From positions 1,728,011 to 1,792,010 of the forward strand of contig NC_019977.1 in NCBI RefSeq assembly GCF_000328665.1: DNA of 64,000 bases, read 5' to 3'. This document shows positions 14,553-48,677 of the stretch, one piece after another. The stretch is from Methanomethylovorans hollandica DSM 15978 (GTDB lineage: Archaea; Halobacteriota; Methanosarcinia; Methanosarcinales; Methanosarcinaceae). Below the pieces are notes generated by a model. That model had not been told where the DNA came from and searched no databases. It saw nothing but the letters and a program-made list of their open reading frames with translations. Positions within the stretch are counted from its first letter, which is position 1, and every line of letters starts with the position of its first letter. The translations under genes were made by a program, and so were the position numbers.

Positions 14553-14642
14553 GGGCTCGTAGGGTAGCCAGGATATCCTAATGGGCTTCGAAACCCATGG
14601 TGAAGACACCCATTGACTCGCGTTCGAATCGCGGCGGGCCCG
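14553..14642 (+). tRNA. tRNA-Arg (anticodon UCG) with a 16-nt intron
   Basis: Acceptor stem GGGCTCG/CGGGCCC, discriminator G at 14642, T arm TCGCG-TTCGAAT-CGCGG. Read continuously, the anticodon loop would have 8 nt. Removing 14592-14607 gives a normal stem ATGGG/CCCAT (14581-14585 with 14609-14613) and loop CTTCGAA, anticodon UCG. The precursor forms a canonical bulge-helix-bulge: ATGGG/CCCAT, 3-nt bulge ACA (14606-14608), 4-bp helix CTTC/GAAG (14586-14589 with 14602-14605), 3-nt bulge GAA (14590-14592), then ACC/GGT. The intron sits at the standard 37/38 position. Confidence 0.93.
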
Positions 14643-14657
14643 CTTGATTTATTAAGT

Positions 14658-47969: not shown

Positions 47970-48022
47970 GTTGATTTTGCTCTAAATCAATTAACCTTGA
48001 TTAGTCGTATTGCGAACAAATC

Positions 48023-48122
48023 TTTAAATATAAGAAATGCATACTTAGAATTAGAGACGAAGGGCAAAACCGGAAAACCTTCTAATACCAAACTGGTGTC
48101 TAAATCCAAAATATATTCTAAG
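48023..48122 (+). ncRNA. Candidate structured RNA between topA and the nitroreductase gene
   Basis: A TATA box TTTAAATATAAG (48023-48034) predicts a start near 48050 with no ORF downstream on this strand. The sequence folds as nested helices: CTTAGAAT (48044-48051) with ATTCTAAG (48115-48122), AGAC (48055-48058) with GTCT (48098-48101), GAAGG (48059-48063) with CCTTC (48078-48082), and ACCA (48087-48090) with TGGT (48094-48097). P2 encloses P3 and P4 as a three-way junction. No known RNA class recognised; could overlap the start of a longer transcript antisense to the nitroreductase. Confidence 0.5.
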
Positions 48123-48152
48123 CCTCCTTAATTTCGGTTTGCGGCTTCGCCT

Positions 48153-48677
48153 CTACCTCCATAAATTACCATACAGTTCTTCAAAAGCTATTTCATTAAG
48201 CTCTTTTCTTGAAGATGTTGTTTTAAACTCGCCTGGATGCCCTATGGCCAGTGCAGCCACGAGTTCAAGAGATGCCGGGGCTTCTAAAATCAAATTCACT
48301 TGTTCTTTATTCTTTAAGATCTCTCCGAGCCACACTGCCCCCAATCCAAGTTCACAACAGGCAAGCAGCATATTCTGTATGGCTGCACCTGTGGATTGCA
48401 CATCTTTTGTGCGATCGTACATCGTAGAGGTATCCAGAAAAACAGCTATGATCACACTTGATCCTTTTACAATAGATGAATAGCGTGTACAAACAGCCAG
48501 CTTTTCTATTGTGTCCCTGTTTTGTACTACTATGAATTTCCAGGGCTGGTTGTTAAGGCCCGATGGTGCCCAGCGTCCGGCTTCAAGGATCATTGTTATA
48601 TCCGATCTTGCCACAGGCTCAGACGTATAACTGCGGATGCTTCTTCTTGAAAGAATGGTCTCTATGGTTCCCTGCAT
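48153..48677 (-). CDS. Nitroreductase-family flavoprotein
   Basis: FMN-dependent oxidoreductase of the NfsB/FRP fold, 174 residues. Seen: the FMN-binding SRRSIRSYTSEPV near residue 10, EAGRWAPSGLNNQPWKFIVV, and NMLLACCELGLGAVWLGEI with the Gly-rich active-site loop, plus ALAIGHPGE near the end. Physiological electron acceptor unknown. Monocistronic; its 3' end faces the candidate structured RNA. Confidence 0.9.
   Translation of the reverse strand: MQGTIETILSRRSIRSYTSEPVARSDITMILEAGRWAPSGLNNQPWKFIVVQNRDTIEKLAVCTRYSSIVKGSSVIIAVFLDTSTMYDRTKDVQSTGAAIQNMLLACCELGLGAVWLGEILKNKEQVNLILEAPASLELVAALAIGHPGEFKTTSSRKELNEIAFEELYGNLWR

What the first reader, a model, noticed from the sequence alone, without database searches (positions are those of the whole stretch)
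48023..48122. Candidate independently transcribed structured RNA
A consensus-like archaeal TATA element is followed by a compact fold of four nested or adjacent helices (8, 4, 5 and 4 bp) in 79 nt with no ORF. The outer 8-bp helix is perfect. It lies between two converging genes, where no leader is expected, and matches no RNA class I know.
Basis: seen in the sequence. Interest (0 to 1): 0.7.

Follow-up and report, generated by a model that had tools for sequence, protein, structure and literature searches.

The report
Conserved methanogen small RNA, anti-ribosome-site loops
Between two converging genes of a methane-making archaeon lies the gene for a roughly 105-nucleotide RNA, found in six related genera and absent from the RNA-family database, that displays the motif CCUCC in open loops and so probably switches off translation by covering the ribosome-binding sites of messenger RNAs.

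Summary
The real RNA starts near 48053, about 30 nt after the TATA box, and runs to at least 48154. It is closed by helix P1 (48052-48062 with 48145-48155), which covaries across Methanosarcinaceae: 9 of 12 pairs show changes on both sides, and the covariation score is 0.346 against 0.155 in shuffles. A covariance model finds it in 43 of 112 family genomes and 6 of 14 genera (Methanomethylovorans, Methanolobus, ANME-3, Methanohalobium, Methanosalsum, one unnamed). It finds none outside the family, and Rfam has no match. A TATA box is correctly spaced in 41 of 42 homologues (about 2 expected). The hallmark is an unpaired CCUCC (anti-Shine-Dalgarno), present in 38 of 42 homologues (10.6 expected), often two or three times. 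Most likely it is a trans-acting sRNA that masks ribosome-binding sites, like Methanosarcina sRNA154 and sRNA41, but no Methanosarcina homologue was detected. No specific target was found, and transcription is inferred, not shown. I rate it a new family of a known kind.

The parts
47983..48004 (+). Upstream dyad TAAATCAATTAACCTTGATTAG, a probable transcription-factor site
   Evidence: Similar dyad TAAATCA-N6/7-TTGATTTA at the same place in Methanomethylovorans and Methanolobus homologues; not seen in the other genera.
48023..48030 (+). TATA box TTTAAATA
   Evidence: TATA-like hexamer 26-32 nt upstream of the RNA in 41 of 42 homologues, 2.1 expected.
48053..48154 (+). The RNA: start inferred at about 48053, 3' end not determined (48154 is the end of the closing helix; it may run to 48160 or beyond)
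   Evidence: Covariance-model matches in 43 genomes; 87% identity within the genus against 62-65% at third codon positions of the neighbouring genes; fold z -3.3.
48052..48062 (+). P1 helix, 5' arm (UAGAGACGAAG)
   Evidence: Pairs with 48145-48155; one A-C mismatch in this genome; 9 of 12 pairs with changes on both sides across 42 homologues, 7 of 14 on the structure-blind alignment.
48145..48155 (+). P1 helix, 3' arm (CUUCGCCUCUA); overlaps the nitroreductase stop codon (48153-48155, minus strand)
48096..48138 (+). Conserved core, mostly unpaired
   Evidence: 93% identity among six genomes of the genus.
48123..48127 (+). CCUCC anti-Shine-Dalgarno motif inside the RNA
   Evidence: Unpaired probability 0.82 in this genome; CCUCC in 38 of 42 homologues against 10.6 in shuffles.
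48156..48160 (+). Second CCUCC just 3' of P1 (here it also overlaps the last nitroreductase codons)
   Evidence: Recurs directly after P1 in most Methanolobus members, where the nitroreductase gene ends some 30-50 nt further on.

Best explanation
A dedicated promoter at 48023 (TATA box with an upstream dyad operator) makes a roughly 105-115-nt noncoding RNA on the plus strand. Its 5' and 3' ends pair in a stable 10-14-bp helix (P1) that closes and probably protects the molecule. Inside, in other genera, sits one further hairpin (P2); in this genus P1 is extended by GCAAA/UUUGC instead. The rest is an open stretch carrying one or two CCUCC motifs, and in many members another follows P1. CCUCC is the sequence the 16S rRNA 3' end uses to find mRNA, so the RNA most likely base-pairs with GGAGG ribosome-binding sites of mRNAs and represses their translation. 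Shown here: conservation, promoter, P1, accessibility and enrichment of CCUCC. Inferred: transcription in this organism, pairing with mRNA, repression, and regulation of the RNA through the upstream dyad. Targets are unknown.
For: P1 covariation with shuffle and slide controls; strand bias of G-U over A-C pairs, about 14 to 3; model hits in 43 genomes and 6 genera, none outside the family; TATA box in 41 of 42 homologues; CCUCC 73 times against 11.9 expected and mostly unpaired; core conservation above third codon positions; Shine-Dalgarno-like 4-mers before 41 of 48 long ORFs of the window, GGAGG before 6; precedent of RBS-masking sRNAs in the same family, Methanosarcina mazei sRNA154, sRNA41 and sRNA162.
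Against: No transcript data could be read. Extended complements of the CCUCC region are not enriched over reversed-pattern controls, and the hits inspected do not sit at conserved start sites, so no specific target supports pairing. Four of 42 homologues lack an exact CCUCC. The 3' end is not defined in this genus: no T-run follows P1.
Confidence: 0.6

Rival explanations
1. A real sRNA, but one that works by binding a protein or the ribosome: CCUCC mimics the 16S 3' end or forms a protein-binding site, so the RNA is a decoy or an RNP component with no mRNA targets.
For: Strongly kept CCUCC and closing helix with no conserved mRNA target found.
Against: The sequence around CCUCC differs between genera, which is easier to explain by changing mRNA partners than by one fixed protein site; sRNAs of the same family are known to mask RBSs.
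Confidence: 0.2
2. A cis-acting antisense RNA of the convergent nitroreductase gene: overlapping 3' ends let each transcript control the other.
For: The RNA is tail-to-tail with the nitroreductase gene at every locus, even where topA has moved away, and in this genus overlaps its stop codon.
Against: In Methanolobus the gene ends some 30-50 nt beyond P1; P1 covariation and CCUCC enrichment are not needed for cis pairing; the short gap alone could preserve linkage.
Confidence: 0.12
3. A bidirectional terminator or 3'-UTR element of the two converging genes, not an RNA gene.
For: It lies between convergent genes, and 31 of 42 members have T4 or more within 30 nt after P1.
Against: Correctly spaced TATA box in 41 of 42; about 80-nt conserved interior between the arms with a 93% identical core; G-U strand bias; no T-run in this genus.
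Confidence: 0.05
4. A chance pattern in intergenic DNA, or a short coding gene.
For: No transcript data could be read.
Against: Covariation, promoter position and motif enrichment. The longest closed ORF inside a homologue is 27 aa, median 7.
Confidence: 0.03

Closest known systems
sRNA154 of Methanosarcina mazei (regulator of nitrogen fixation)
   Same: Intergenic archaeal sRNA of the same family of organisms with a stable fold and a loop carrying an anti-RBS sequence that blocks translation of glnA2 (review PMC5867862).
   Different: No match of the model to Methanosarcina genomes; sRNA154 has two loops and also stabilises mRNAs; its sequence could not be compared directly (paper not held).
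sRNA41 of Methanosarcina mazei
   Same: [quoted passage not shown] the presumed mechanism here.
   Different: No detectable homologue in Methanosarcina; targets of the present RNA unknown; sRNA41 sequence not available here for direct comparison.
sRNA162 of Methanosarcina mazei
   Same: Uses an unpaired region to cover the RBS of MM2441 (PMC3510493).
   Different: Three stem loops with a 39-nt linker, 191 nt, reported only in close relatives; the present RNA is about 105 nt, closed by one end-to-end helix, in six genera.
The 195 intergenic sRNAs mapped in Methanolobus psychrophilus R15 by dRNA-seq
   Same: The present family has a member in G084 (C1:742708-742829, -), whose size (3,072,769 bp, one contig) I believe fits R15, so it may already be one of the listed transcripts (PMC5378194).
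   Different: The listing (Table S6) could not be opened; the passages read describe no such family, structure or CCUCC motif.

Membership tests
Archaeal intergenic trans-acting anti-RBS sRNAs (kind of sRNA154/sRNA41/sRNA162) | Intergenic gene with its own promoter | tested here: met
   TATA box at the right distance in 41 of 42 homologues; start site not mapped by experiment.
Archaeal intergenic trans-acting anti-RBS sRNAs (kind of sRNA154/sRNA41/sRNA162) | Conserved secondary structure | tested here: met
   P1 covariation; fold z -3.3 here and mean -4.1 over homologues.
Archaeal intergenic trans-acting anti-RBS sRNAs (kind of sRNA154/sRNA41/sRNA162) | Unpaired sequence complementary to ribosome-binding sites | tested here: met
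   CCUCC in 38 of 42, mostly unpaired.
Archaeal intergenic trans-acting anti-RBS sRNAs (kind of sRNA154/sRNA41/sRNA162) | Specific mRNA targets recognisable from sequence | tested here: inconclusive
   No enrichment of extended complements and no conserved target; partial pattern searches only, no genome-wide interaction prediction.
Archaeal intergenic trans-acting anti-RBS sRNAs (kind of sRNA154/sRNA41/sRNA162) | Base-pairs with target mRNA and represses translation | not testable with these tools
   Needs experiments.
Homology with Methanosarcina sRNAs | Member detectable in Methanosarcina genomes | tested here: not met
   No match in Methanosarcina; with laxer filters the best match in 25 genomes of the negative genera is E 2.8.
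Any Rfam 15 family | Match at gathering score | tested here: not met
   None for the element in the window or in eight homologous loci, even at E<=1 apart from one weak unrelated hit elsewhere in L149.
C/D box sRNA | C box RUGAUGA followed by D box CUGA | tested here: not met
   0 of 42 homologues.
Intrinsic terminator of the convergent genes | Short hairpin and T-run, no promoter, no conserved loop | tested here: not met
   Promoter and ~80-nt conserved interior between the arms; no T-run after the helix in this genus.

The most novel reading that the evidence does not exclude
A global translation regulator of methylotrophic methanogens and ANME-3: one RNA with tandem anti-Shine-Dalgarno motifs that lowers initiation of many GGAGG-dependent mRNAs at once, under a dedicated transcription factor, with specificity set by motif number and accessibility and not by long pairing.
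Probability: 0.2. Interest if true: 0.8.

Novelty: new member of a known kind. Interest (0 to 1): 0.55.

Why it matters
Few archaeal sRNAs have known functions, and at least one of the studied Methanosarcina sRNAs (sRNA162) was reported only in close relatives. This one is held across six genera, including ANME-3 methane oxidisers, with a clear covarying helix, a conserved promoter and an obvious functional motif. It gives a model that can be put into RNA-family databases and a candidate to test in cultivated Methanolobus or Methanomethylovorans, and it makes the question of RBS-masking in archaea comparative.

Tried and rejected
Rfam and tRNA/tmRNA: no match to the element. C/D box: rejected. 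Homologue in Methanosarcina, Methanococcoides, Methanohalophilus or Methanimicrococcus: none. Targets by extended complement of the CCUCC region in Methanomethylovorans, Methanolobus, Methanohalobium/ANME-3: hits no more frequent than the reversed-pattern control, and those inspected mostly lie inside coding sequence or before no long ORF. Regulon of the upstream dyad: sites lie before thiC (G000, G003), near dnaG and other genes; no coherent function. P2 hairpin: stable and repeated in form in other genera, but nearly invariant within Methanolobus, so little covariation. Laying out the whole genome was not available. Literature: no paper found describing this RNA; the sRNA154 paper was not held.

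Full report
WHERE IT IS. The window lies in a genome of 2,714,013 bases in 2 contigs. The nearest named relatives are Methanomethylovorans (topA C-terminus 80-88% identical), and the size fits M. hollandica (my inference). The element lies between topA (plus strand, ends 47969) and a Pfam nitroreductase gene (minus strand, 48153-48677).

The TATA-like sequence at 48023-48030 is real and the small inverted repeats exist, but the fold fails. 48023-48140 folds no better than shuffles (z -0.5). The 8-bp 'outer helix' keeps only 3-5 of 8 pairs in the five congeners, and its 5' arm lies upstream of the likely start site.

WHAT IS REALLY THERE. A DNA search found the element in all five congeners at 84-90% identity. 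The same intergenic place in other genera showed a repeated design: TATA box, about 30 nt, (T)AGAGACGAAG, an interior with CCUCC, then CUUCGUCUCU and often CCUCC plus a T-run. The two arms form helix P1. On a MAFFT alignment of 24 sequences that knew nothing of structure, 7 of 14 P1 pairs show changes on both sides. The covariation score is 0.313 against 0.144 in shuffles and 0.05-0.16 when slid. On 42 distinct model-aligned homologues it is 9 of 12 pairs, 93.8% paired cells and 0.346 against 0.155 (this alignment leans towards the structure). Examples are C-G to U-A, G-C to A-U, G-C to U-A and A-U to G-C. G-U pairs outnumber A-C pairs about 14 to 3 (counted), as expected if the plus strand is the RNA.

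SPREAD. A covariance model finds the RNA in 43 of 112 family genomes and 6 of 14 genera, usually once per genome; two ANME-3 genomes have two copies. It finds none at E<=0.01 outside the family in an order-wide search of 186 genomes. Searches above 40 genomes use stricter filters, so weak members may be missed; a laxer search of 25 genomes of the negative genera gave nothing below E 2.8. Names come from topA loci: Methanomethylovorans, Methanolobus, ANME-3 (HMMV bins), Methanohalobium, Methanosalsum and one unnamed genus; I matched them to the genome search handles through contig lengths. Methanosarcina and Methanococcoides lack the RNA, although several Methanococcoides keep the topA-nitroreductase order.

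PROMOTER. A TATA-like hexamer sits 26-32 nt before the RNA in 41 of 42 homologues, 2.1 expected. In Methanolobus psychrophilus R15, promoter elements lie about 19-22 nt from the start site (PMC5378194), which puts the start at the first bases of P1. In Methanomethylovorans and Methanolobus a dyad TAAATCA...TTGATTTA lies just upstream.

MOTIF. CCUCC occurs in 38 of 42 homologues (10.6 expected, maximum 18 in 300 sets of shuffles) and 73 times in all (11.9 expected), mostly with an unpaired probability above 0.8. In the window it is at 48123-48127, with a second copy at 48156-48160 that overlaps nitroreductase codons. It is the most widespread 5-mer of the family. Mean fold z is -4.1 with homologue-defined ends, -3.3 for 48052-48161.

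SELECTION. Within the genus the RNA is 87% identical and its core 93%, against 62-65% at third codon positions of the neighbouring genes.

MECHANISM. CCUCC complements GGAGG; Shine-Dalgarno-like 4-mers precede 41 of 48 long ORFs of the window and GGAGG 6 of 48. With the precedent of sRNA154, sRNA41 and sRNA162 in the same family, the best reading is a trans-acting RNA that masks ribosome-binding sites. It is unproven: extended-complement searches gave no conserved target. The RNA is tail-to-tail with the nitroreductase gene at every locus examined, so a cis role stays open, but promoter, loop and motif conservation go beyond what a terminator or antisense overlap would need.

NOVELTY. No Rfam family matches and no paper found describes it. 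It works like a known kind (anti-RBS sRNA) but was not detectable as a member of any described family. It could be among the 195 R15 sRNAs; that table could not be opened.

Noticed in passing
window 14553-14643 (+): ARAGORN calls an odd tRNA with an 8-nt anticodon loop. Homologues in other families of the order are 73 nt long; read with an intron removed it gives a loop CUUCACA, so it is probably an intron-containing tRNA-Glu(UUC) that the bacterial-mode caller misread (my reading).
   Followed up: partly
window 47983-48004; G000 C2:80409 and 80553; L307: The dyad upstream of the RNA promoter resembles palindromes TAAATCAAGTTnACTTGATTTA elsewhere, including between a glycosyltransferase gene and thiC in two Methanomethylovorans genomes; pattern matches exceed the reversed-pattern control in six of seven genomes. 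The regulator is unknown.
   Followed up: partly
L140 1501-2093 (G032), L176 2939-3600 (G134): Two ANME-3 genomes carry two tandem copies of the RNA; in G032 a partial nitroreductase gene lies between them, as if a gene-plus-RNA unit had been duplicated.
   Followed up: partly
L032 and L042, downstream of the nitroreductase gene: In two other genera (G012, Methanosarcina; G006) the DNA next to the nitroreductase gene holds a different inverted repeat (GTGTTGCGTCAGCG...TGACGCGACA; GTGTCGCGTCAAC...), perhaps another structured or mobile element.
   Followed up: no
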